From the NCBI GenBank assembly GCA_016169945.1, contig JADLSH010000231.1, positions 1,240,001 to 1,304,000 on the forward strand: a DNA stretch of 64,000 nt, read 5' to 3'. Of this stretch, positions 241 to 63,542 are shown piece by piece. Each line of letters starts with the position of its first letter. The first letter of the stretch is position 1. A program made the position numbers and the translations under genes. Below the pieces are notes generated by a model. That model saw only the letters and a list, made by a program, of their open reading frames with translations. It had not been told where the DNA came from and searched no databases. The DNA is from Trachythela sp. YZ-2020 (Eukaryota > Cnidaria > Anthozoa > Malacalcyonacea > Clavulariidae).

Positions 241-2417
241 TCACTTCTTCTGATACCACTTTTTCTTTCCATACCTGCCGCCAACATTCCCTCTCAGAAC
301 AGGTGCAATGTCTCTTTGTGCAGCGATGGTGAGGTCATTGTAGCCAAACTGCTGGGCTGTGGGGTTATCCGAGTGTCCACCTTTAGCTCTCTGGTGCCCA
401 AAGTAGTCCTCTAGCACATCTTGCATAAATCGTTCGCTGAGGACATATTGAAACCCTTCAGCAAGCAAAAACTGAATGGCCTCAATATGTGAATGTACAT
501 AAATTTTCAAACCTTTATAAGTTTGAAGCAAAAGGAACATCTTTCCTCTGTCGTCAGCAGAATAATTCCCCTCTCGTTGCATGGTGCTGTCTCTCCAATC
601 ATCAAGATATTTCAAGAAGACATCTTTCAACCAAGTAAATCTTTCATCACCTTGCAATTCATAGGGTTTGATGAAATGATTTCTTTTCCTGACATGTTCA
701 GTCAAAGACCTTACGTTTGTACAGTCAAAGAAATCATTCATCATCCTACAAAATTGGACCGTACCGGTGACATCTTCCTTCCCACTTTTCCTCCAACGCA
801 ATAGCAACCGACTTGGGTTGCCAACTTCACTTTCATCTTGCTGTACGATGTAAGTACAATGTGATCAAGAGAAAGCTTTGGTAAAGTGTGCAAAGCAAAC
901 CCTTGATCACTATAGAACAGATCCGCGATGTGCCTAAACAGTAGATAATGCCCATCATTCCACATAAATCAACTGCGCGAACCCGAACCAGAATTGTACA
1001 AACAGTTCCGAGCAGTCTTAATCAGGTGACAAGCATCAGCGAAGAAGTATATGAACCGTGACATGGCAAAGATATTATGCACCTTGTGAACCACATCAAG
1101 TTTCAAGTCACTGACAAACTTTGCATGAAGGTCAAAGAACTTGCGATTTGGTGATGCTCCATCATTTACCGCTGCACAGACCCAAAGGTTTACTGACAAC
1201 TCCAGAACACCAACAACTTTCCAGAAGATAGACATTAACTGGTAAGAGGTAACATTTTCAGTTAAATAATATGCAATAACATGCTTGAGGTCACTGCACA
1301 TTCCTCTTACCAGAAATGCCAAGGCATGGGTTGCCATAACATCTTTGTCACCAAGATTTGCATAATTAGTCATTGGATCACCGAGATCCACAAAGCCAAT
1401 TAAGTCCCCAGAATGCTTGTCAAATACAAGGTTGGACTGGATTTTCATCTCGTCCATCACTACAACCACATAGCGCTGAATTCCAGAGAGTGCTGAAGCC
1501 TTTTCTTGGAGATTCTCAATGTTCTCAAAGTTAATGTCTGCCTTAGGTTTAAAATAGTTTTTGTAGTCTCTTAGGACACGTTCACTTGGCAGAATGAGAG
1601 CACCGCTGTCCCTGAGCTCACGGTATGCAGCTGGAGATTTTCCGTGCAAAGAGAGGGCAAATCGAATTAATTGGGGTGATAACGCCGTCCAAATTTTTCA
1701 CTTTGTAGGAGCTTCATTTGCTGCTCCCAAAAGAATTTCATATGAGGGGTTGTTTCAAGATTTTGACCACCCATGATCTTTAGTATGTCATTCTCCAATG
1801 ACCCACTTATTCCCACACCATCAACCTTTATTTTTCCCTCGAGCTCTTTTATCCTGCCTTCTAGCTGTTTACATTCTAGTCTTGACGCTTTTACAGTTGC
1901 CACTAACTTCTCGGAACTGCATGATGCAAGTGGAGCTTTACTTTTGGCTGGGGCTGATGTTGTTTTCTTCTTTCTCCTAGCAGCTTTCTCGAGAGTAGAT
2001 AGGGTTTTCGCACAGGGGTTACAAGGTTGGTCTGCAGGACTGTCGGTAATCATGGTAACTTCACATCCAGGGGACCGGAATGTTACACTTGTTTGAAAAT
2101 TGCTCTCCGAAATGCACTTTGGGATGGAATGCCGAACAACCGTAGATTCGGGAAATCCAGACAAATCGAGATCAGTGGTTGGGTCAGCTACAACTGATGT
2201 GGTCATTTCATTTTGTGGCAAACCAGCTGGGACCTTTGCCCCACCCCCAATACCCAAACCGCTTCGCCGTCCCTGCTTTGGACAAAATAGAAAGCATTGT
2301 TGCAGAAACATTTGAGAATTTCGGTTTGCCAAATTTCACGTTTCGCATGTGTGATGCTTGTTGCAAAAACGTCGTTTGCCCTGTCCAGGCGCAGGCCTCA
2401 GGAGTTGTGACAGGCAC
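241..2417 (-). pseudogene. P-element (THAP9-like) transposase, frameshifted remnant
   Basis: Read on the minus strand, four to five collinear pieces in different frames form one decayed transposase: 2417-2208, 2332-1667, 1649-969, 965-741 and 807-241. The 1649-969 piece contains the family hallmark DEMKIQSNLVFDKHSGDLIG, the first part of the RNase-H-like core. The last piece carries the C-terminal signature EDYFGHQRAKGGHSDNPT seen in P/THAP9 transposases. The 2332-1667 piece has a basic linker and a coiled-coil-like segment. No complete THAP zinc finger is visible at the N-terminus. Frame changes near 1660, 967 and 800 look like single-base indels, not introns, because the joined reading resumes at once. 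The family makes cut-and-paste transposases acting in the nucleus; this copy cannot make the full protein. Domestication is unlikely given the breaks. I am confident of the family and less so of the 5' limit. Confidence 0.85.
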
Positions 2418-16705: not shown

Positions 16706-18114
16706 TCAGACTTTAATGGTTGCTCTGTTAATTCCCGATTGTCTCATAGGTCTCATTTCTTCACATTCATCTTCGCTTTCGTCAACTCGTGCTTTCTTAA
16801 AGTGTGATACGTTTCTAGTCACTGTCTTACCGTCTCTTTCAGCTGTTATGGTATTGTACTTGCGTTGTACTACCGTATAATGTTCTGGGTCAAATTTTGG
16901 TGTTAATTTATTGTTTTTCTTCTGCTTGCAAATGACAGTATCGCCTTTTTTGATCTCTGATTCCTTTGTTCTTTTATTCCTGTCATAATACTCTTTATTC
17001 TCTTCCTTCTTCTTCTCCAAGTTTGTTTTTGCCATCTGGTGTTTGTTAACGACTTTCTTTCTCGCTAATTCTGGTAAATATCCATGTATTTGTCTGTTAA
17101 AAAGTAGTTCGCATGGAGCCACTTTTGTGGTTTGATGAGGAGTTGAACGGTATTGAAGTAGGAATCTTTGCAATTCCTGCCTCCAATTCTTTTCTTCAAT
17201 TTCTGCTGTTTCAGTAGCTTTCCAATTGGTTTCATAAATCTTTATACCACCGCATTTCCTTGTGGCCACAGTGGTGTAATAGTTTTCCATTCAACGCCGA
17301 GGGTTTTAGTATATCTTTCAAATTCTTTCCCATTGAATGGGGTCCATTGTCCGTCAGTTGTCTTTGATGGTATTCCATATCTAGCAAAAATTGTATCCAG
17401 CTTTGGTATGCATGATTTTGCGTCGGTTGAATTAACGATTTCGACCTCTGGGAATTTTGAGTAGGTGTCAATAACCACTAGCAGGTATTGACCAGTTCGG
17501 GGTATTGGACCATAGAAGTTAATTGCTACACTGGTCCATGGTTTGTCTTCGGTCGGGGTTATTTCCATTGGTTCCGGGTTATTACTGTGCCCTACTGATT
17601 GGCAAGCAATGCATTTATCTACCATCTCTTTCACTGGTTTGTCCATATTCGGATACCAGATATTTTTCCGTAGCAAACTTTTGGTTTTCTCTATTCCCTG
17701 ATGCCCAATATAACCTAATTGTGTTACCCTTTCTTGTAGTGTTTTTGGGATCACTATTCTTGTGTTCTTCAACAATATATCTTCTGATGCATTGTAAGTA
17801 AGTTCATCAGCGCAAAGTCTAAATTGTGCTCTAAAGTGTAAATAGTCTAATAAGTCTATCGGATCCTTGTCATTCTGATCCCGTTTTCCCTCTTTCAGAC
17901 ATTCTTTAACTTTACATAATACTGGATCATTACGGGTCGCTTCTTTAATCTCGTCAAGTATCATTGACTTTGGAACTGAACAGTTAGTGACATAGTTTAC
18001 GTATTCGTCAGCTGATGTACTAGCTATTTGCTCTCTCTCTATAACAACTGGTTGTCTGCTTAAGTAATCCGCTTCATTCAGTGGGCCTTTTCGGTATATT
18101 ACTTTATCATCCAC
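16706..18114 (-). pseudogene. Gypsy pol: RNase H end, integrase and C-terminal tail
   Basis: 18114-17242 encodes the tail of RNase H (YRKGPLNEADYLSRQP), a zinc-binding region (IGHQGIEKTK..CIACQ) and the integrase core. The first catalytic Asp position reads VAINFYGP where the family has D, so GAC has become AAC (17518-17520). The second Asp region is TTDGQWTPF, with D kept and the NGP context lost. The catalytic Glu position is a stop codon (TAA, 17242-17244) right after QGNAVV. Beyond it, 17244-16706 carries the conserved C-terminal part (LLQYRSTPHQTTKVAPCELL and the downstream basic tail). Integration activity is excluded for this copy. Confidence 0.88.
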
Positions 18115-19145
18115 CGCTCAATGCGGGCGGGTGGTCTGGATCTCGGATTATTAAATATTGATTCTAATGCTTTATGATCAGTTATCACATCAAATTCTGA
18201 TCCAATCAAGAACATTCGGAAATGTTCAAGTCCCCATACTAAACTCAGTCCTTCGATGTCTGTTTGAGAGTATCGTTTCTCTACTGGGCTAAGGGCTCTA
18301 CTTGCATACGAAAGCATTTTGTACTGCTGGCTGTGCTGTTCTTTCTGGGCTAGTATGGCACAAATTCCGTAAGGGGATCCGTCTACTATTACCAAGCTTC
18401 GTTTCTTGGTATCGAAGTATGCCATTACTGGTGAACTTGTTAGTCTCTTTTTTAGTTGTTCGAATGCTTTCTGATGTGTATGTTCCCATTTAAAGACAGT
18501 GCCAGTTCTTTGTCAGTTCTCTAAGCGGTGTTGTAATAGTTGCATAATCTGGAATATACTCATGGCATGTGTTTGCAATTCCAAGAAAACTCCTAACTTC
18601 CGCAGCCGTTTTAGGAGATGGTACTTTAACCATATTTGCGATTCTCTCCGGATCGGATTTGGTTCCTTCTGCTGTAAAATTTAATCCGAAGAACGTAATT
18701 TCTTCTTGTAGAAATTCGCATTTTTCGCCTTTGACTTTCAAGTTTAGCTCTGCCAGACGCTTTAGACAGTTCTCTAGTGCTTCATCATGTAACTTTCGAG
18801 TTTTGCCATGAATAATAATGTCATCCATTAGGTTTTTAACTCCTTTGATATCACTAAGGTTTTGCTTTAAAATCTTGTAAAGTTGGTATTGTATGTCGTT
18901 TTCTTTCGATTGCCTGGTTTGCTCCTCTCATGTCCACGCATAGTCTAATACCTCCATCTTTCTTTGGAGTAGCGACTATTGGAGATAATCATGGAGTTGG
19001 TTGATTTGCGACTTTCTCAATAATATCTTGCTCTTCTAATTTCTTTAGTTCTTTCGAAATGTCTTTTCTCGTATGATATGGTATCCGTCATATCAGCTGA
19101 GTTGTTGAGCTGTTTCAGCACTCAAGATTGGATTCAAGTGTTGCT
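18099..19145 (-). pseudogene. Gypsy pol: reverse transcriptase (core deleted) and RNase H
   Basis: Reading from about 19110 leftwards, the RT starts with a KDISKELKKLEEQDIIEKV segment, an in-frame stop, then SPIVATPKKDGGIRLCVDMR. Shortly after HTIPT the reading jumps to a segment that belongs just before the catalytic box, ending NLMDDIIIHG at about 18830. By comparison with Gypsy RTs some 60 residues, including motif A, are missing. 18828-18490 then gives the connection region (CEFLQEEITFFGLNF..FLGIANTCHEYIPDYA), and 18489-18099 gives RNase H (VIVDGSPYGICAILAQKE, LSYASRALSPVEKRYSQTD). Several frame changes separate these parts. Confidence 0.88.
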
Positions 19146-23661: not shown

Positions 23662-23849
23662 AAAGTTTTTGTAAAAAGTGTAAAAATTTAGGTAATTACG
23701 AGTAATTAAGTTTTCTAGCTTAAAAATTTGAATAAATTGAGAATATATAATACAGCACACACAGAATTCATTTTTAAAACACATTTATTGATTAAAATTT
23801 ATTTTACAGCGTTTATAGTAAGGTCTGCTCCTAAGAGCATATCGTTTAG

Positions 23850-24302
23850 GCGTCTTTTAAAGAGTTCTCATATTCTTGTCTGTCTTCGGGTAATAATCTT
23901 GCAATATCCTCAGATTTCATAGGAATATATTTTGGTCTCTCGTGAAGCAGTCTTTGTTCGTAACCTCTCGTTGCTCTGGAAAAAGTTGTGTTTGAGTTTT
24001 GGCCGTTCTCCTTATGTTCGTGGTGGTGTGAGAAAGCCAGGTTTAGGAGTAGCAGGCACAGGTTGTGTCATCTCGATAGATCTAGGAGTGGTTGGTTGTG
24101 TTATCTCCATAAGTTCAGGAGCGATTGGTGGTTCAACGATATCTGGGGATTCAACAACTGCAGGACGGTGAATCGGAAAATCCATCTTGTTTTTAAAAGT
24201 AAGAAATCGATTAAGTTGGTCAGAATAAAACTTGCTTTTCTCAACCGCGGTAAGCTGTGGTGCTTTAATGATCTCTTGCATTCGCTGCTCGGTGTTATAC
24301 AT
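23850..24302 (-). pseudogene. Polinton-type accessory protein remnant, copy 1
   Basis: From 24302 the frame reads MYNTEQRMQEIIKAPQLTAV, then a proline-rich stretch ending FLTPPRT before a stop at about 24012. A shifted frame continues to about 23850 with an RLLPEDRQEYENSLKDA-like end. Proteins with this start lie next to the packaging ATPase in animal Polintons/adinto-like elements; their function is not known to me. It follows the ATPase C-terminus (24516-24310) on the same strand, as expected of that gene order. Confidence 0.7.
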
Positions 24303-24309
24303 TGCATTT

Positions 24310-24516
24310 ACAAGGGTGGTTGGTGATAGGACTGTTTCCGTACATATCCGACTAAGGCCTCAGCTTCACCTGACAATACATTTGTTTTGAGTCGTTTGTT
24401 GCTCACTCGTTGTAGGTTTTAAATCCAACATCAAATACCCATGAGGACGGCTCGTGGCTTCTTCATACTCATCATAATCTCTCGCACTCTACCAGGATGA
24501 ATTTGTCTTGCAAGCA
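24310..24516 (-). pseudogene. Packaging ATPase C-terminal remnant, copy 1
   Basis: Truncated by the duplication junction. It encodes the C-terminal end of the A32/FtsK-HerA-type ATPase found complete to its P-loop in copy 2 (26150-26700). The frame is broken near the GYLM-like region. Confidence 0.7.
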
Positions 24517-25417: not shown

Positions 25418-25605
25418 AAAGTTTTTGTAAAAAGTGTAAAAATTTAGGTAATTACGAGTAATTAAGTTTTCTAGCTTAAAAATTTGAATAAATTGAGAAT
25501 ATATAATACAGCACACACAGAATTCATTTTTAAAACACATTTATTGATTAAAATTTATTTTACAGCGTTTATAGTAAGGTCTGCTCCTAAGAGCATATCG
25601 TTTAG

Positions 25606-26058
25606 GCGTCTTTTAAAGAGTTCTCATATTCTTGTCTGTCTTCGGGTAATAATCTTGCAATATCCTCAGATTTCATAGGAATATATTTTGGTCTCTCGTG
25701 AAGCAGTCTTTGTTCGTAACCTCTCGTTGCTCTGGAAAAAGTTGTGTTTGAGTTTTGGCCGTTCTCCTTATGTTCGTGGTGGTGTGAGAAAGCCAGGTTT
25801 AGGAGTAGCAGGCACAGGTTGTGTCATCTCGATAGATCTAGGAGTGGTTGGTTGTGTTATCTCCATAAGTTCAGGAGCGATTGGTGGTTCAACGATATCT
25901 GGGGATTCAACAACTGCAGGACGGTGAATCGGAAAATCCATCTTGTTTTTAAAAGTAAGAAATCGATTAAGTTGGTCAGAATAAAACTTGCTTTTCTCAA
26001 CCGCGGTAAGCTGTGGTGCTTTAATGATCTCTTGCATTCGCTGCTCGGTGTTATACAT
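25606..26058 (-). pseudogene. Polinton-type accessory protein remnant, copy 2
   Basis: Same reading as 23850-24302 (MYNTEQRMQEIIKAPQ.., then a proline-rich segment, a stop, and a shifted C-terminal part). Confidence 0.7.
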
Positions 26059-26079
26059 TGCATTTACAAGGGTGGTTGG

Positions 26080-26700
26080 TGATAGGACTGTTTCCGTACA
26101 TATCCGACTAAGGCCTCAGCTTCACCTGACAATACATTTGTTTTGAGTCGTTTGTTGCTCACTCGTTGTAGGTTTTAAATCCAACATCAAATACCCATGA
26201 GGACGGCTCGTGGCTTCTTCATACTCATCATAATCTCTCGCACTCTACCAGGATGAATTTGTCTTGCAAGCATAGAGATTTGTTGCCTATCTCTTGGTGA
26301 TTTAAAAAGCACGATATAATGGGCGTTGAGACTAATATCCCTCATCTCTTTTCTGTGATGACTCCCTTTTGTGAAGAGTTCAGCTATACGTTTGTCCTTG
26401 CCCGATTGTGCCATAAGATCAATCTAGTATGATCAAATTGCGTTGAGACACATCTACGTTATCTGCTTTGTCGATATCTTCAGGTATTCCTTCATTGAAT
26501 TATATTCCAGGCATTGTTCTCATCATATCAAAATAGGATGGCTGCCATTGACCATAACACCAGATGATGCGCTGAGGAGGTGGAAACAGAGTCTTCACCC
26601 ATACAGTCTTGCCACTCTGTGTACATCCTGCTACGATACAAGTAGTTTATCTGTAAATGAAGATATTCCACACCTTCATCTAGATCAATTACCTACTTTC
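26080..26700 (-). pseudogene. Polinton/adintovirus-type packaging ATPase remnant
   Basis: Minus strand, from right to left: a P-loop CTQSGKT at about 26628-26604, then RIIWCYGQWQP, an in-frame stop, a Walker-B-like NLIILD at about 26435, a one-base frameshift, and the open stretch 26414-26187 (AELFTKGSHHRK, then DISLNAHYIVLFKSPRDRQQ and ARQIHPGRVREI). This is the motif order of the A32/FtsK-HerA-like genome-packaging ATPases of Polintons and adintoviruses. At least one stop and two frame changes break the gene, and a short stretch between GSHHRK and the DISLNA region is missing compared with relatives. No capsid, polymerase or integrase gene lies beside it. Confidence 0.82.
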
Positions 26701-41880: not shown

Positions 41881-42680
41881 CCTCCAACAGCAATAAGAAC
41901 AATATCAACAGTCTTCAGTCCACCACCATTGCTTGTGACGTCATTACGAGGTGTAGAAACCACCACAGGGCGAAGGGTGTACGAGGGCGTACGAGGCGTT
42001 GGAACCACCACAGGGCTAAGGGTGTACGAGGGCGTACGAGTTGTAGAAACCACTACAGGACGAACGGTGTACGAGGGCGTACGAGGTGTAGAAACCACTA
42101 CAGGGCGAAGGGTGTACGAGGGCGTACGAGGTGTAGAAACCACTATAGGGTGAAGGGTGTACGAGGGCGTACGAGGTGTAGAAACCACCACAGGGCGAAG
42201 GGTGTACGAGGGCGTACAAGGTGTAGAAACCACTACAGGGCGAAGGGTGTACGAGGGCGTACGAGGCGTTGGAACCACCACAGGGCTAAGGGTGTACGAG
42301 GGCGTACAAGGTGTAGAAACCACTACAGGGCGAAGGGTGTACGAGGGCGTACGAGGCGTTGGAACCACCACAGGGCTAAGGGTGTACGAGGGCGTACGAG
42401 GTGTAGAAACCACTACAGGGCGAAGGGTGTACGAGGGCGTACGAGGTGTAGAAACCACTACAGGACGAAGGGTGTACGAGGGCGTACGAGGTGTAGAAGC
42501 CACTACAGGGCGAAGGGTGTACGAGGGCGTACGAGGTGTAGAAACCACCACAGGGCGAAGGGTGTACGAGGGCGTACGAGCTGTAGAAACCACTGCAGGG
42601 TGAAGGGTGTACGAGGGCGTACGAGGCGTTGGAACCACCACAGGGCGTAAACAGGCTGCTTTAGTTATGATCGTGGTTGT
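41881..42680 (-). CDS. Gene A exon: MRH end, mucin-like 15-residue repeats, helix start
   Basis: Acceptor GTACTTTATAG|ACAACC and donor GG|GTAAGAC. It begins TTIITKAACL, which fits the last strand and final Cys of an MRH domain. Then come about 15 copies of a 15-residue unit (consensus VVVSTPRTPSYTLRP), and NDVTSNGGGLKTVDIVLIAV, the start of the transmembrane helix that the next exon completes. Pro/Ser/Thr-rich repeats of this kind are usually O-glycosylated stalks on type I membrane proteins. The phase is 0 at the left junction and 2 at the right, agreeing with both neighbours. Confidence 0.8.
41955..42640. repeat. 45-bp coding minisatellite (about 15 units)
   Basis: A 45-bp unit (AGGGTGTACGAGGGCGTACG in the middle, plus strand) is repeated about 15 times with variants (GTTGGAACCACC or TGTAGAAACCACT). 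Long frames are open on both strands because the unit length is a multiple of three. Confidence 0.95.
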
Positions 42681-49557: not shown

Positions 49558-49954
49558 CTTTATATAAAATTCGTTTTCTTAGTAAAGCGAAGGTGCTCAC
49601 AAAGCATTTCAGACAGTTAAAAAGCACGTGAGATTCTTTGTAAACCACGCATTACTTGGAATTACGGCTAGATTGTCGTGGTTTCCTGGAACGCTACGGG
49701 TGACAATATAAACACTCAAAATGAAAATGCATATAAATGAATTGATAAACCTTAATAGACTGTTAGTTGATATATTTTGAAGTTTTATTAATTAAATATT
49801 TAAATATTTCTACATTAAGCCTGGGCGACGTTGAAATGTTACTATGTCTATGTTACTTTCATTTTCGTGCACGTATACAAATTTAACGAGATTTAATTTC
49901 CGTTTAGCGATTGCAAGAATTGGAAGTAGGTAAACACATACATACAGGGTCGGA

Positions 49955-50272
49955 AGTAATTAGTATTCATACGTCACGCCTGGAAGTAAGAATAATAATG
50001 AGGTGACGTACCCTCTGAGGTTGCGCAACCTAGAGGTGACGTACCCTTTGAACCGATTATTAGTATTCATACGTCACGCCCAGAAGTAAGAATAATGAGG
50101 TGACGTACGCTCTGAGGTGTGAAAAAGTTTCGCACGCGCTGTACGGAATGTTTGTTGTCAGTAGAGAGAAATAAATAACAGCAGAGAGTTTTGTGTTTTA
50201 ATTTGATTTTATTTAAATTACACACAACAATTTAAATGTTTCTTCTAATAAGAAAGACGTTTTATAGTTTTG
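49955..50272. repeat. Left terminal inverted repeat of the ATPase element
   Basis: Inverse of 52149-52465 with scattered indels. It contains five TGACGT/ACGTCA (CRE half-site-like) words and the phrase AAAAAGTTTCGCACGCG. Its inner end holds the last two codons and stop of the zinc-finger gene. Confidence 0.9.
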
Positions 50273-50525
50273 CTTCTTCTATCATTGGTATCCAAGGATC
50301 CATTTCTTCTGCTTCTTCAGTTTCTGACTCATTATCAGTCGTCATCGAAATTTCAGACCCATGAGTTGAAGTTGTCGAGACATCGTCTTGGAAATCCCTT
50401 TCCTGGCTATCCGAGTCTGTTTGAGACATGTTTCTTTCTTGTTCGCGTAGTGAACAGTATTCGTTTTCGTGTCTGCGTAGATTGTAACCGCGGCTAAATT
50501 GTTTTCCGCAAAATTTGCAGCTCAT
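50262..50525 (-). CDS. Small C2H2-type zinc-finger protein of the ATPase element
   Basis: 87 codons, start at 50525. A single finger, CKFCGKQFSRGYNLRRHENEYC, spans residues 3-24 (last ligand Cys or a preceding His, a C2HC variant). It is followed by an acidic, Ser/Thr-rich tail ending EEMDPWIPMIEEAKL. Small zinc-finger proteins of this kind occur in animal Polinton/adinto-like elements; they may bind DNA, but the role is unknown. It is divergent from the ATPase (starts 332 bp apart, facing away), suggesting a shared central promoter. The stop codon lies inside the left TIR. The frame is complete and unbroken. Confidence 0.75.
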   Translation of the reverse strand: MSCKFCGKQFSRGYNLRRHENEYCSLREQERNMSQTDSDSQERDFQDDVSTTSTHGSEISMTTDNESETEEAEEMDPWIPMIEEAKL

Positions 50526-50857
50526 TCCGTTACCACTGACTGTCTGGAAATGACTTGCTTTTCAGCAGCACGGCACTTTTATGAGCAGACGCTTAAAGCT
50601 CTCATAGGTCGACTCCGATAGAACCCCCAGGGGACCCCTACAGAATCCCCCAGGGAACCCCGAGGGAGCCCCGAGGGAATCCCCTGGGAACCCCGAAGGA
50701 ACCCCCAGGGAACCCCTTGGGAACCCTGAGAGAACCCCCAGGGAACCCCGAGAGAACCGCTACAGAATTGCCCCAGAATCCTTGCAAACCCTTAATTAAA
50801 GCATTGCTATATAGAACTGAATTTATATATAAACTTCAATCATTTGCAGTAGCACTC
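50526..50857. promoter_or_regulatory. Central divergent promoter region with GC-rich minisatellite
   Basis: It separates the two divergent genes. It holds degenerate tandem units of GGGAACCCCGAGAGAACCCC type (50625-50770), and a TATA-like TTATATATAAAC at about 50822, 25-35 bases before the ATPase ATG at 50858. An upstream in-frame ATG at 50717 would translate part of the minisatellite. Confidence 0.5.
50625..50770. repeat. GC-rich minisatellite (CCCCAGGGAACCCCGAG)
   Basis: About eight to nine imperfect 15-18-bp units of the GAACCCCCAGGGAACCCC type. Confidence 0.85.
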
Positions 50858-52159
50858 ATGCCAAGACGATTTCCTCGGACCTGTCCGACATGCGGCCGGC
50901 CTAATTTAAAGAACATCAGTACACATCTTTTAAAAGTTCACGGCTTACCATCCAAGGAGAGACAACACGTTCTTCAGCAAGCCCAGGTGTCATCATGGCA
51001 ATATCAATCTCCATATCCGGACTCCGAAAAGCCAGGAGAAAAGCGTGTAAGCCGAAGTGCACACTCGTTGCCAGCTAAGAAACCAAAAGCAGTACAAGCT
51101 AAAGCATCTTCGACAATCAAACCCTATCCGGAATTCAACTTCCGTCATAAATTTTCGCTATTAGTCGTGGGTCCGAGTCAAAGTGGAAAAACGTATTTTG
51201 TCCAACAAATTTTGGAAAACAATCGTATCGTGTATGAGGAAAAGAAACACATTCGTATCATGTGGTGTTATAATCAATGGCAAGATTGTTACGACGAGTT
51301 GAGAAAATCCCTTGGGAAAAGCATCCGGTTTGAGAGAGGTCTTCCCGAGCTGTCCCATGATCTGAGTGAGATCAATACCAAGTACAACAACATAATCATA
51401 CTGGATGATCTAATGGCCGAAGCGACAGGCAGTCCTGTGGTAGCTCGATTATTTACCCAGGGTCGTCATAGAAACGCTAGTGTTATCCTTTTGCTTCAGA
51501 ACATGTTTCCTAAGGGGAAATTTAATACAGATATTAGCCGAAATGCCCAATATCTTGCTCTCTTCCGAAGTGCCAGTGATAGAAAACAAATTGGAATTGT
51601 TGGAGAGCGAATGTTTGATAAGACTAGAGACCGCTTCATGACTGCCTACCACAGGGAAACCGAAAAGCCGTTTGGATACTTATTGGTGGATAACAAGTCT
51701 GACACACCAACCGATAAGCAAGTTCTTGGAGACCTATTTGGCGACTGCCATGTTTATCCCTTCACCACCCAAACTAAAGTGAACAGTACTACACCCACAC
51801 CGGTCTCTGGCATCGAAACCAAGCCTGGAAGAAAACAACCTAAACTTGCACATCATCGGTATATTACCTGGTCGGATGCAACTATCCCCGAGTGGCAAAA
51901 CTACACCGACAAAGCCGATACCATTCGTGTCATTCCCAAAGGATATGCTATCATAGAGATGTATAAATCGTCGCGCAATAGTTTTGATCCTGGCCATCCG
52001 GGTGTCTACATCAACGAAGAACATTATTGGCCTGTCAAAATAAGGCACCAATCTACAGGCCATATAAAATGGGTGAATCTGCACGAAGACGAGTCTACGG
52101 TCCGAGACTTTGTTAAGGAAACCATGGCTATATATCGAACAATAAAGCCAAAACTATAA
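50858..52159 (+). CDS. Packaging-type (A32/FtsK-HerA-like) ATPase with N-terminal zinc finger
   Basis: 434 codons including stop, no breaks. Residues 1-30 carry CPTCGRPNLKNISTHLLKVH, a C2H2 finger. A basic, Ser/Pro-rich linker follows to about residue 95. The P-loop GPSQSGKT is at about 103-110, MWCYNQWQDCYDE at 136-149, Walker B NNIIILDDL at about 183, then GRHRNASVILLLQNMFPKG (sensor region) and SRNAQYLALFRSASDRKQ. This order is diagnostic of the packaging ATPases of Polintons and adintoviruses, which drive genome translocation into capsids. A C-terminal extension of about 110 residues (from YITWSDATIPEWQNYTDKAD) is unlike the ATPase core and unrecognised. I prefer the ATG at 50858 because translation from 50717 would run through a minisatellite. 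The stop is inside the right TIR. Relatives in the window (26.1-26.7 kb) are broken; this one looks functional. Confidence 0.88.
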   Translation: MPRRFPRTCPTCGRPNLKNISTHLLKVHGLPSKERQHVLQQAQVSSWQYQSPYPDSEKPGEKRVSRSAHSLPAKKPKAVQAKASSTIKPYPEFNFRHKFSLLVVGPSQSGKTYFVQQILENNRIVYEEKKHIRIMWCYNQWQDCYDELRKSLGKSIRFERGLPELSHDLSEINTKYNNIIILDDLMAEATGSPVVARLFTQGRHRNASVILLLQNMFPKGKFNTDISRNAQYLALFRSASDRKQIGIVGERMFDKTRDRFMTAYHRETEKPFGYLLVDNKSDTPTDKQVLGDLFGDCHVYPFTTQTKVNSTTPTPVSGIETKPGRKQPKLAHHRYITWSDATIPEWQNYTDKADTIRVIPKGYAIIEMYKSSRNSFDPGHPGVYINEEHYWPVKIRHQSTGHIKWVNLHEDESTVRDFVKETMAIYRTIKPKL

Positions 52160-52465
52160 AACGACTTTCTTATTAGAAGAAACATTTAAATTGTTGTGTG
52201 TAATTTAAATAAAATCAAACACTCTGCTGTTATTTATTTCTCTCTACTGACGACAAACATTCCGTACAGCGTCGTGCGAAACTTTTTCACACCTCAGAGG
52301 GTACGTCACCTCATTATTATTCTTACTTCCTGGCGTGACGTATGAATACTAATAATCGGTTCAAAGGGTACGTCACCTCCAGGTTGCCTCATTATTATTC
52401 TTACTTCCTGGCGTGATGTATGAATACTAATTACTTCCTGGCGTGATGTATGAATACTAATTACT
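52149..52465. repeat. Right terminal inverted repeat of the ATPase element
   Basis: Inverse of 49955-50272. It holds the ATPase stop codon, an AATAAA polyadenylation-like word (about 52207) mirrored in the left arm, and a tandem duplication of the 30-bp tip (GGCGTGATGTATGAATACTA twice). Confidence 0.9.
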
Positions 52466-52485
52466 TCTAATTCCGTACGTACGCA

Positions 52486-52605
52486 AATGACGTCATATGG
52501 CGGGAAAATTACGCTGGATGTACGTTGCTGACGTCATATGGCGGGAAAATTACGCTGGATGTACGTTGCTGACATCATATGGCGGGAAAATTACGCTATA
52601 TGGGG
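52486..52605. promoter_or_regulatory. Three tandem CRE plus E2F-like units
   Basis: Three ~42-bp units TGACGTCATATGGCGGGAAA, then ATTACGCTGG: the CRE palindrome TGACGTCA (TGACATCA in the third) beside GGCGGGAAAA, an E2F-like site. They sit 20 bp outside the right TIR. Factor binding is inference from motifs. Confidence 0.6.
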
Positions 52606-52914
52606 GGTAAAGAACTACTATTGGACTACAGAACCTGCGTAGCTGGCGGTTTTAAGGGGTTTGGGGTTGAGGGCAGTTGAGGCGCGGGCAGCGAAAAATT
52701 AGGGAGGCGAGGCGCGGGAAAGGAGAAATACTAGATGCAAATTAATTATCCGTTCACCAGTGAACGGGAAAAACGGATTGGCTAGTATTTTAGGTACTTG
52801 TCAATCAAGTGGGTCAGCTGTATGGTGCGTTTTCAGTGTCAGTATTCGCTAATCTGAATTGTTTAGCAAGATATCATTCGGCATATGAAATTAACCATCA
52901 GGTTGATGGCATTT

Positions 52915-53132
52915 TGGTATAGACTTTGCCATTCGGCTATAGATTTTGTCATTCAGCTATAGACTTTGTCATTCGGCTATAGATTTTGTCATTCGGCTAT
53001 ACTTTGTCATTCGGTTGTCATTCGGCTATTTGTCATTCGGCTATTTGTCATTCGGCTATTTGTCATTCAGCTATTTGTAATTCGGCTATTTGTCATTCGG
53101 CTATTTGTCATTCGGCTATTTGTCATTCGGCA
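52915..53132. repeat. 15-bp minisatellite (TTTGTCATTCGGCTA)
   Basis: About twelve units TTTGTCATTCGGCTA, some with an inserted TAGACT/TAGATT, nearly identical in the right part. Confidence 0.95.
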
Positions 53133-53260
53133 AGCATCCCAGCAGTCTTTGCCCGATTAGTTTCCAGCGAATAAATTATGGAATAAATTATACACCCTGC
53201 TGTAAACACACATTTAATAGAATTACTATCATGCTTTATATCACTAAAACGGGCGTGAAT

Positions 53261-53413
53261 CAGTAGCGAAGCCAGCCTGACAATTTGGTCATGCTATGCA
53301 AATTTTAAATCATTATCATTATTCATTTCTTTAGAAATTGATTGTTTTCACAGTCTATGAACACGGAAATATTTGCATAGCATGACCAAATTGTCAGGCT
53401 GGCTTCGCCACTG
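53261..53413. mobile_element. 153-bp hAT MITE with 8-bp TSD GCGTGAAT
   Basis: CAGTAGCGAAGCCAGCCTGA / inverse ..GGCTTCGCCACTG, flanked by GCGTGAAT at 53253-53260 and 53414-53421. The arms are about 40 bp (AATTTGGTCATGCTATGCAA). It is inserted in a monomer of the ~215-bp satellite (AAAACGGGCGTGAAT|CTATACAACATAG). Confidence 0.92.
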
Positions 53414-61985: not shown

Positions 61986-62010
61986 TCATCTTGGCTGGGA
62001 TTAGCTATGG

Positions 62011-62808
62011 ATGGTAGTAAGACAAAATCAAGGAGAGTCGCTCGATAGTTATCACGTTAGACTTCGTCAACTCGCTAAAACTTGCGATTTTTCGGACATG
62101 GATAAAGAGATAAAAGAACATATTATTCTTAGCTGTACTTCGAGCACGCTGCGTAGGCGAGCACTTCAGGATAAATACAGCTTGGACAAGTTATTGAAAG
62201 TTGGAAGATCGTTAGAAATCAGCGAAAGGCAAGCAAGACATCTCGAAGGAAGAGATCAAACAATAAATTCAGTTCGCGGCAGAAACAGAAGCTATCAAGC
62301 GAGACGAAATTATTCATCGCGTGAGGACAAACCACCCACTCATTTTGACAAGAAGAATTTTCATACCTATCAACAAAGTAAAGAGCCGAATCAAACCTGC
62401 AGAAACTGCGGTGGACATTTTCCCCATAAACAAGTTTGTCCAGCGAAAGATAAAGATTGTAGAGCATGCGGAAAACGTGGACATTTTGCACGCGTATTTC
62501 GTACGAATCCACCGAAATCGAAACCTGTGAATGCTGTCGCACAATTCCTTGATCAGTACCGATCAAGCAACGACGAAGCTGAAAAGTACGAATATGTGTA
62601 CACGGTTAAAAAGTCACCAAATTGCCCACCTACCTGTCTAATTGAAATAGAAGGACAACGACTCAACATAATGATTGATACCGGAGCATCGGTCAACCTG
62701 ATAGATGAAACAACCTACAAAAAAATAAATCGACATGGAGAACGAAAATTGGAAAAGCAGAGCGCCACATCGACTCCTATGGTTCGTCAGCACCCCTACC
62801 CGTACTAG
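62011..62808 (+). pseudogene. Gypsy gag C-terminal part and protease
   Basis: 265 codons open: gag helix (CDFSDMDKEIKEHIILSC), basic linker, knuckle 1 CRNCGGHFPHKQVCP, knuckle 2 CRACGKRGHFARVF where the last zinc-binding Cys is replaced by Phe, then the protease motif MIDTGASVNLIDE at about residues 225-237. A stop at 62806-62808 interrupts the transition to RT; the next frame opens at 62841. Missing gag N-terminus and the altered knuckle indicate a dead copy. Confidence 0.85.
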
Positions 62809-62840
62809 GAACGTTTGTCACTACGATCAAAACACCAGAT

Positions 62841-63542
62841 GTGTCAACAATTGCCAAGTTACATGTCGTTAAAGGAAATTTTGGAAATCTACTCAGCTTT
62901 GCCACAGCCAAGCAATTGAATCTCCTTCAAGTATCTGTAAATACAGTCGATGTTCCATACCCTGAATGTCTACAACAAGAGTACAAGTGTTTGTTTGGAG
63001 GAATTGGGAAAGTAAAAGGACGGTTGATTAAATTACATATAGATCCCCAAGTGAAACCGAAACAACAGCCTCATCGTAGAATACCTTTCCACGTACGAAA
63101 AGATGTAGAGAAAGAACTTGAGCGGTTAGAGAAGTTGGATATAATAGAGAAAGTTGTTGGTCCAACGCCATGGGTAAGTCCTATCGTGGTTGTGCCAAAA
63201 GATTCGGGAGAAGTGAGAATTTGCGTCGATATGCGTGAAGCTAATCAGGCGGTGAAAAGGGAGAAACATCTGATGCCTACTACGGACGATCTCATTGCTG
63301 ATCTTAACGGTGCTACGGTATTTAGTAAGCTGGATCTCTCGTCTGGATATCACCAATTTGAATATGCTCCAGAAAGTCGGAACATAACCAGGGTGCAAGG
63401 ATGCCATATGCCTGGATGCAAGAATATATCAGATGACATTATTGTTTTTGGTAGAAATCAGAAAGAGCATGATACAAACCTACGTGGAGTTCTCGAAAGA
63501 TTGAAGCAGTATAACATCCGTCTAAAAGAAGAAAAGTGTTAA
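62841..63542 (+). pseudogene. Gypsy reverse transcriptase with internal deletion
   Basis: 233 codons: KPKQQPHRRIPFHVRKDVEK, then PTPWVSPIVVVPKDSGEVRI and CVDMREANQAV, motif A FSKLDLSSGYHQFEYAPESR, and right after NITR the sequence jumps to CKNISDDIIVFGRNQKEHD (motif C). About 40 residues, including motif B, are missing compared with family members. The reading then ends in KEEKC and a stop; the downstream part shifts frame. Confidence 0.85.

What the first reader, a model, noticed from the sequence alone, without database searches (positions are those of the whole stretch)
49955..52465. Minimal TIR element: intact packaging-type ATPase plus zinc-finger gene, nothing else
About 315-bp inverted repeats enclose just two divergent genes: a complete packaging-type ATPase and a small C2H2 protein. 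Polintons/adintoviruses normally carry polymerase, integrase, protease and capsid genes over 15-20 kb. An ATPase kept intact while everything else is missing suggests either a satellite-like element packaged or mobilised by a full relative, or a new use of this ATPase. It is the only clearly unbroken mobile-element gene in the window.
Basis: partly seen in the sequence, partly recalled or inferred. Interest (0 to 1): 0.88.

Follow-up and report, generated by a model that had tools for sequence, protein, structure and literature searches.

The report
Two-gene satellite element of Polintons
A 2.7-kb mobile DNA element, probably in a cnidarian genome, carries only a DNA-packaging motor gene and a (here damaged) zinc-finger gene, and it belongs to a large family whose ends are built like those of full virus-like Polintons in the same genome, which suggests a parasite of those elements that keeps its own packaging motor.

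Summary
The ATPase (50858-52159) is intact; the C2H2 gene is truncated beside the TIR.

In its own genome (578 Mb) this is a family: of 97 scored ATPase loci, 55 have a divergent C2H2 gene close by and none a same-strand one (capped lists). The terminal motif AGTAG...CGGAAGT occurs 206 times against 3 in the control. The same motif bounds an 11.6- and a 14-kb Polinton with their own ATPase and, between them, PolB and a weak protease match. The 14-kb Polinton and one 3.3-kb element share 119 of their first 120 bp. The small element's ATPase is a separate lineage (30-31% core identity to two resident Polinton ATPases, 61-85% to 11 chosen relatives) with added zinc-finger and C-terminal domains; its core is under purifying selection.

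Best reading: a satellite mobilised in trans by Polintons, whose own ATPase selects its DNA for packaging. Mobilisation is supported by the shared ends; packaging is inferred.

The parts
49919..49924 (.). left target-site duplication ATTGGA
49925..50272 (+). left terminal inverted repeat, tip AGTAGGTAAACACATACATACAGGGTCGGAAGT, with subterminal GTGACGT (3x) and ACGTCAC (2x)
50262..50525 (-). C2H2 zinc-finger gene, truncated (87 aa; complete-looking copies in L031 and L033 are about 190 aa); its last codons run into the TIR
50621..50758 (.). intergenic 11-bp tandem repeat (unit GAACCCCCAGG) between the divergent genes
50858..52159 (+). intact ZnF + A32/HerA-type packaging ATPase + C-terminal domain, 433 aa
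50882..50941 (+). N-terminal CxxC-x10-H-x4-H zinc finger of the ATPase (residues 9-28; C9, C12, H23 at least 90% conserved, H28 invariant in 21 sequences)
51170..51193 (+). Walker A GPSQSGKT (residues 105-112; motif name recalled)
   Evidence: sequence
51389..51415 (+). Walker B region NIIILDDLM (residues 178-186, D183-D184 invariant; motif name recalled)
   Evidence: sequence
51866..52144 (+). C-terminal domain (residues 337-429; ten-residue blocks 341-420 at pLDDT 86-93), absent from the 219-aa Polinton ATPase of L040
52149..52462 (-). right terminal inverted repeat, part homologous to the left arm; begins at the ATPase stop codon; has an extra 30-bp unit
52463..52619 (-). outer right arm of a different terminal type (41-bp repeats; tip AGTAGTTCTTTACCC); 95 bp match the right end of the copy in L015 at 98%
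52620..52625 (.). right target-site duplication ATTGGA

Best explanation
The window holds one copy (partly decayed: C2H2 truncated, right tip of another type) of an abundant family of small integrative elements that behave as satellites of Polintons (Mavericks/adintovirus-like elements), probably in a cnidarian. SHOWN: AGTAG-type Polinton termini and 6-bp duplications; two divergent genes (C2H2 factor; ZnF-ATPase-CTD); no polymerase, integrase, protease or capsid gene recognised in the window copy or in L031 and L033; and, in one pair, a tip near-identical to that of a 14-kb Polinton in the same genome. INFERRED, in order of confidence: (1) the Polinton's integrase and protein-primed PolB act in trans on the shared tips; (2) the C2H2 protein regulates the element's promoters or the helper's early genes; (3) the satellite's own ATPase recognises satellite-specific subterminal sequence through its added domains and drives packaging of satellite DNA into helper capsids, competing with the helper's ATPase, much as phage satellites bring their own packaging specificity.
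For: Family and layout: (55 of 97 paired, 0 same-strand; both genes between two inverted arms at 15 of 24 places read). Termini and TSD; tip motif 206 against 3 control; listed tips face helper-type ATPases within 15 kb inward in 9 tip-gene pairs (7 loci) against 1 outward (only 100 of 206 tips and 150 of 1343 candidates were available). Helper: L040 ATPase; L042 PolB, PF03175 E 4e-36; L041 ATPase and weak adenovirus-protease match. Matched tips: 119/120 bp, TSDs TTTGCT (helper) and TATCAC (C16 element). Separate ATPase lineage: 30-31% to two helper ATPases against 61-85% to 11 chosen relatives. Selection: ATPase core median dN/dS 0.36 (44 of 45 pairs with dS > 0.02), C2H2 median 0.39 (63 of 66 pairs). 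Persistence: 582 homologues at E <= 1e-3, with source names from Actinostola, Exaiptasia and Porites among the 120 listed. Fold: 17 BFVD matches at E <= 1e-3, among them mimivirus packaging ATPases, adenovirus IVa2 and virophage ATPases (TM-scores only 0.24-0.35 on the query).
Confidence: 0.72

Rival explanations
1. Ordinary non-autonomous Polintons: internal-deletion derivatives that happen to retain two genes as passengers, with no role for the gene products.
For: Many copies are broken, including the window's C2H2 gene; a tip-bounded element without these genes exists (L024, 3.8 kb) and its first gene matches the helper piece L040, so plain deletion derivatives do occur; the C-terminal domain shows weak constraint.
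Against: The ATPase is not the helper's: 33% identity over 197 aa with extra N- and C-terminal domains, while 11 chosen relatives are 61-85% identical over the core. C2H2 probes gave no hit in seven Polinton pieces. 34 of 97 ATPase loci align from residue 1 to at least 420 without a stop (counted by eye). dN/dS is below 1 in the core.
Confidence: 0.14
2. An autonomous minimal transposon in which the ATPase and the C2H2 protein are themselves the transposition machinery.
For: Only two genes, both conserved; high copy number.
Against: A P-loop ATPase and a C2H2 protein supply no known strand-transfer activity (established knowledge). Termini and 6-bp duplications are those described for Mavericks (PMC8097293, passages), and tips match a resident Polinton.
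Confidence: 0.05
3. An anti-Polinton interference element: the ATPase acts as a dominant competitor that blocks helper packaging, and the host tolerates the family for that benefit (compare mavirus, recalled).
For: Same anatomy as the satellite model; a diverged competitor of the helper ATPase is what interference needs.
Against: No evidence of host benefit; copies look like selfish amplification, with 6-bp TSDs and a recent pair of arms (C16 arms 125/125 identical). Not exclusive of the main reading.
Confidence: 0.08
4. Assembly artefact: a full Polinton collapsed to its ends.
For: None found.
Against: Perfect TSD round the window copy and round other copies of similar size on other contigs.
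Confidence: 0.01

Closest known systems
Polinton / Maverick (adintovirus-like) elements
   Same: AGT-type termini, long TIRs, 6-bp TSD, an FtsK/HerA-class packaging ATPase; zinc-finger 'Ziftr' genes are reported in some adintoviruses (PMC11071296, passages)
   Different: No PolB, integrase, protease or capsid gene recognised; about 2.3-3.3 kb in 7 of 8 copies measured (the eighth 4.1 kb), against 11.6 and 14 kb for the two tip-sharing Polintons; a different ATPase lineage with added ZnF and C-terminal domains
Non-autonomous transposons (MITE-like, deletion derivatives)
   Same: Shares ends with a larger element and lacks the mobilising enzymes
   Different: Keeps two conserved genes, the ATPase core and C2H2 with dN/dS below 1, and its ATPase is not derived from the resident Polintons examined
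Virophages and transpovirons (satellites of giant viruses)
   Same: A small DNA element that depends on a larger DNA virus (dependence inferred here); virophages also have a packaging ATPase of this fold group
   Different: Virophages encode their own capsids (PMC11071308, passage); this has none; the presumed helper is an animal Polinton
Capsid-hijacking phage satellites (PICI/SaPI, P4; recalled, not searched)
   Same: Conceptually: the satellite brings its own packaging specificity and borrows the capsid
   Different: Eukaryotic, an ATPase rather than a small terminase, Polinton-type integration; hijacking untested
Adenovirus IVa2
   Same: ATPase of the same fold group (E 1e-5); IVa2 is also a DNA-binding packaging/transcription factor (recalled)
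   Different: Adenovirus IVa2 lies in a complete virus genome; domain make-up was not compared in detail

Membership tests
Polinton / Maverick | long TIRs with AGT-type ends | tested here: met
   AGTAG tips in the window and other copies; 206 matches of the tip motif; end motifs per PMC8097293 (passages)
Polinton / Maverick | 6-bp target-site duplication | tested here: met
   window ATTGGA; L011, L013, L016, L017, L031; C16 and C163
Polinton / Maverick | protein-primed PolB | tested here: not met
   the two genes are the only window ORFs there beyond short antisense frames of at most 109 aa; L031 and L033 have two frames of 150 aa or more inside
Polinton / Maverick | rve integrase, protease, capsid genes | tested here: not met
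   no room and no such ORF in the window's 2.7 kb; same in L031 and L033
Polinton / Maverick | packaging ATPase | tested here: met
   PF04665 above cut-off; 33% to a Polinton ATPase; BFVD structure matches
Non-autonomous element mobilised by Polintons | termini shared with a larger element in the same genome | tested here: met
   C16 against C163: 119/120 bp; for the window copy only the motif
Non-autonomous element mobilised by Polintons | movement depends on the autonomous element | not testable with these tools
   needs experiment
Viral satellite with capsid hijack | own conserved genes absent from the helper | tested here: inconclusive
   in Polinton pieces L036-L042 the probes gave only the distant ATPase match (33%) and no C2H2 match, but whole helpers were not read and three C2H2 genes lie 2.7-4.6 kb from helper-type ATPases
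Viral satellite with capsid hijack | satellite DNA found in helper particles | not testable with these tools
   no particle data; viral-contig scans found no relative

The most novel reading that the evidence does not exclude
An ancient, cnidarian-wide lineage of Polinton satellites: two-gene integrative elements that borrow the polymerase, integrase and capsid of resident Polintons but encode their own sequence-specific packaging motor (ZnF-ATPase), so that packaging specificity, not replication or capsid, is what the parasite keeps. This would be an animal counterpart of the capsid-hijacking phage satellites.
Probability: 0.45. Interest if true: 0.92.

Novelty: new variant of a known kind. 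Interest (0 to 1): 0.82.

Why it matters
Maverick/Polinton particles have not been observed (so the abstract of PMC8097293, listing). Abundant satellites whose one large conserved gene is a packaging ATPase would be indirect evidence that Polinton capsids are made and are worth hijacking, and they give a small, countable marker (satellite DNA in DNase-protected particles) for testing it. They would also extend capsid piracy by small integrative elements from phages to animal mobile DNA.

Tried and rejected
Scans of viral contigs with the ATPase, the C2H2 protein, the ATPase alignment and the L024 ORF found no relative. The 16.4-kb TIR pair at C155 looked like a full Polinton but is a copy split by an insert that carries a TNP-type transposase. 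Two PolB loci (C141, C239) were read first as helpers; their flanks show other genes and no AGTAG/GGAAGT-like tip within the 4-4.5-kb pieces read, so they were not used as the helper. The 10.0-kb tip pair at C57 was not examined. My first idea (note) that the left TIR is a snap-back copy of the right end was dropped: the other copies have the same inner TIR border, so a deletion of roughly 360-430 bp explains the window copy. An early note that the right tip is missing was corrected. PDB matches by Foldseek are weak (best E 3e-3), and PDB sequence searches gave nothing useful. Dropped before counts: the second piece of the C2 locus (98 matches became 97 loci). L016, L017, L029 and L030 share flanks and count as one insertion; L017 and L030 were both left in the ATPase-core dN/dS set. 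Not all copies show a TSD: of 17 loci, I read exact 6-bp duplications in 7 (L011, L012 by eye after a shift, L013, L016, L017, L030 by eye, L031); the window's was found only; L024 is 5 of 6; the rest were unresolved or had decayed ends. Eight literature searches listed no paper on two-gene Polinton satellites; I saw only the rows listed, plus passages of PMC11071308, PMC11071296, PMC6431247 and PMC8097293.

Full report
WHAT IS THERE. The window (C170:1240001-1304000 of a 578-Mb assembly) contains an element at 49925-52619. Both ends are AGTAG/CTACT and both are followed outside by ATTGGA, a perfect 6-bp target-site duplication; CTACT occurs once in 52300-53300. The left arm and the inner right arm are about 315-bp inverted repeats. 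The outermost part of the right arm, about 157 bp, is of another terminal type, and 95 bp of it match the right end of the copy in L015 at 98%, so this copy has mixed ends.

A FAMILY, NOT A SINGLETON. The TIR probe found 62 matches in the assembly (40 of 754 candidates scored). The ATPase found 97 loci (97 of 1692 candidates scored); by eye, 34 of these 97 align from residue 1 to at least 420 with no stop. The C2H2 relative P0226 found 150 (150 of 1312 candidates scored). I read 19 places round TIR hits and 5 round C2H2 hits. At 15 of these 24 both genes lie between two inverted arms (L011-L013, L014/15, L016, L017, L020, L021, L023, L025, L026, L029, L031-L033; some genes are broken or interrupted). 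At 9 they do not: one gene, one arm or neither gene (L018, L019, L022, L024, L027, L028, L030, L034, L035). Public data hold 582 homologues at E <= 1e-3 (120 listed; best full-length match 70% identical; source names Actinostola, Exaiptasia, Porites). I take the host to be a cnidarian (inference).

SELECTION. Nei-Gojobori dN/dS on stop-free pieces. ATPase core: 10 copies, 45 pairs, 44 with dS > 0.02, median 0.36, 31 under 0.5; 0.10-0.16 for the three printed pairs with dS above 0.5, all with L033. C2H2: 12 pieces, 66 pairs, 63 with dS > 0.02, median 0.39, 42 under 0.5, but some young pairs above 1 (up to 2.2). C-terminal domain: 9 copies, 36 pairs, median 0.76, only 3 under 0.5. Decaying copies inflate these numbers, and L017 and L030 stem from one duplicated insertion. 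The core is constrained; the tail is not clearly so in this genome, although it aligns across the family.

ENDS AND HELPERS. Tips of independent copies follow AGTAG-N21-CGGAAGT (L020 varies). The motif AGTAG-N-T-N16-G-N2-CGGAAGT has 206 matches in the genome against 3 for the reversed control (100 places listed). Facing tip pairs among the listed places delimit elements of 1.5-5.6 kb and three of 10.0, 11.6 and 14.06 kb. The 14.06-kb element (C163) contains a 219-aa ATPase (L040; 33% over 197 aa to the window protein; no Pfam family above cut-off) and a 636-aa PolB frame (PF03175, E 4e-36). The 11.6-kb element (C229) contains the same ATPase type and a frame with weak similarity to adenovirus protease (E 0.02, below cut-off). 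ATPases of this helper type were found at 150 listed places (150 of 1343 candidates scored). Listed tips face such ATPases within 15 kb inward in 9 tip-gene pairs (7 loci) and outward in 1. The C16 element (3.28 kb, satellite ATPase inside; its C2H2 gene not checked) and the Polinton at C163 are identical over the first 100 bp and at 119 of 120, then diverge; each has its own exact 6-bp duplication (TATCAC; TTTGCT). Maverick ends and 6-bp duplications are as described in PMC8097293 (passages).

NOT A RECENT LEFTOVER. Over 216 core columns the window ATPase is 30-31% identical to the two helper ATPases of the same genome, but 61-85% to 11 chosen relatives from public data. The helper protein is the core alone; the satellite protein adds the finger and the C-terminal domain. 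C2H2 probes gave no hit in seven Polinton pieces. So the pair was probably not produced by deleting a resident Polinton of this type. A plain deletion derivative may look like L024: similar tips and a first gene that matches L040, without these two genes. Against this, and unresolved: two satellite ATPases and three C2H2 genes lie within 15 kb of a helper-type ATPase (about 0.8 and 1.2 expected by chance), the C2H2 ones at 2.7-4.6 kb; no C2H2 gene lies within 15 kb of the 76 listed PolB loci.

HOW IT MOST LIKELY WORKS. Shown: integration with Polinton-type ends and duplications, ends shared with a resident Polinton in one pair, two conserved genes. Inferred: Polinton integrase and PolB act on the shared tips; the C2H2 protein is a regulator; the ATPase, through its finger and tail, recognises the satellite's own subterminal repeats and drives satellite DNA into helper capsids. 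The last step is the boldest and is untested. It is favoured because a packaging motor has no use outside packaging that I know of, and it is the one large gene the family keeps.

NOVELTY. Eight literature searches listed no description of such elements in the open-access library (rows listed only); subscription papers and Repbase reports were not searched. Zinc-finger 'Ziftr' genes and packaging ATPases are known from adintovirus-like genomes (PMC11071296, passages), which fits an origin from that group. Non-autonomous elements and viral satellites are known kinds; a Polinton satellite defined by its own packaging ATPase is a new variant.

Noticed in passing
window 26158-26643 (-), with a near-duplicate stretch 23846-24359 / 25602-26115: Broken Polinton-type packaging ATPase (32-33% identity to the satellite ATPase in pieces; also matched by L040/L041) beside a duplicated ORF; remains of another Polinton.
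   Followed up: partly
window 241-2335 (-): TNP-type (P-element-like) transposase piece, PF21787 E 2e-23 in 969-1694, with neighbouring frames; a transposase of the same family lies in the insert that interrupts a satellite copy in L014/L015.
   Followed up: partly
L018 (C35:923130, 926064, 928980): Three TIR-C2H2 units in tandem about 2.9 kb apart, without a detected ATPase; possibly concatemer-like amplification.
   Followed up: no
L024:5087-8909 (C390): 3.8-kb AGTAG-tipped element without the two genes, with a 281-aa ORF of unknown family and a small basic-region gene resembling one in L040.
   Followed up: partly
G000 C230:6057299-6060457, C280:802929-807690, C390:15690425-15694305: C2H2 genes of the satellite type 2.7-4.6 kb from helper-type ATPases; nested insertion or a Polinton that carries the C2H2 gene.
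   Followed up: no
L036, L038 (C141, C239), flanks of PolB genes: A second PolB-bearing element group with a shared 405-422-aa ORF (capsid-like by eye only) and other genes, no AGTAG/GGAAGT-like tip in the pieces read.
   Followed up: no
L040:4521-4916: Weak Bcl-2-like match (E 0.03, below cut-off) in the 14-kb Polinton, and a similar ORF in L041.
   Followed up: no
window 17245-18117 (-) and 62005-63542 (+): LTR-type integrase piece (PF17921 E 2e-12, PF00665 below cut-off) and a gag-pol-like stretch (by eye); ordinary retroelement remains.
   Followed up: no
window 41945-42647: 45-bp tandem repeat, 15.6 copies, open on both strands.
   Followed up: no
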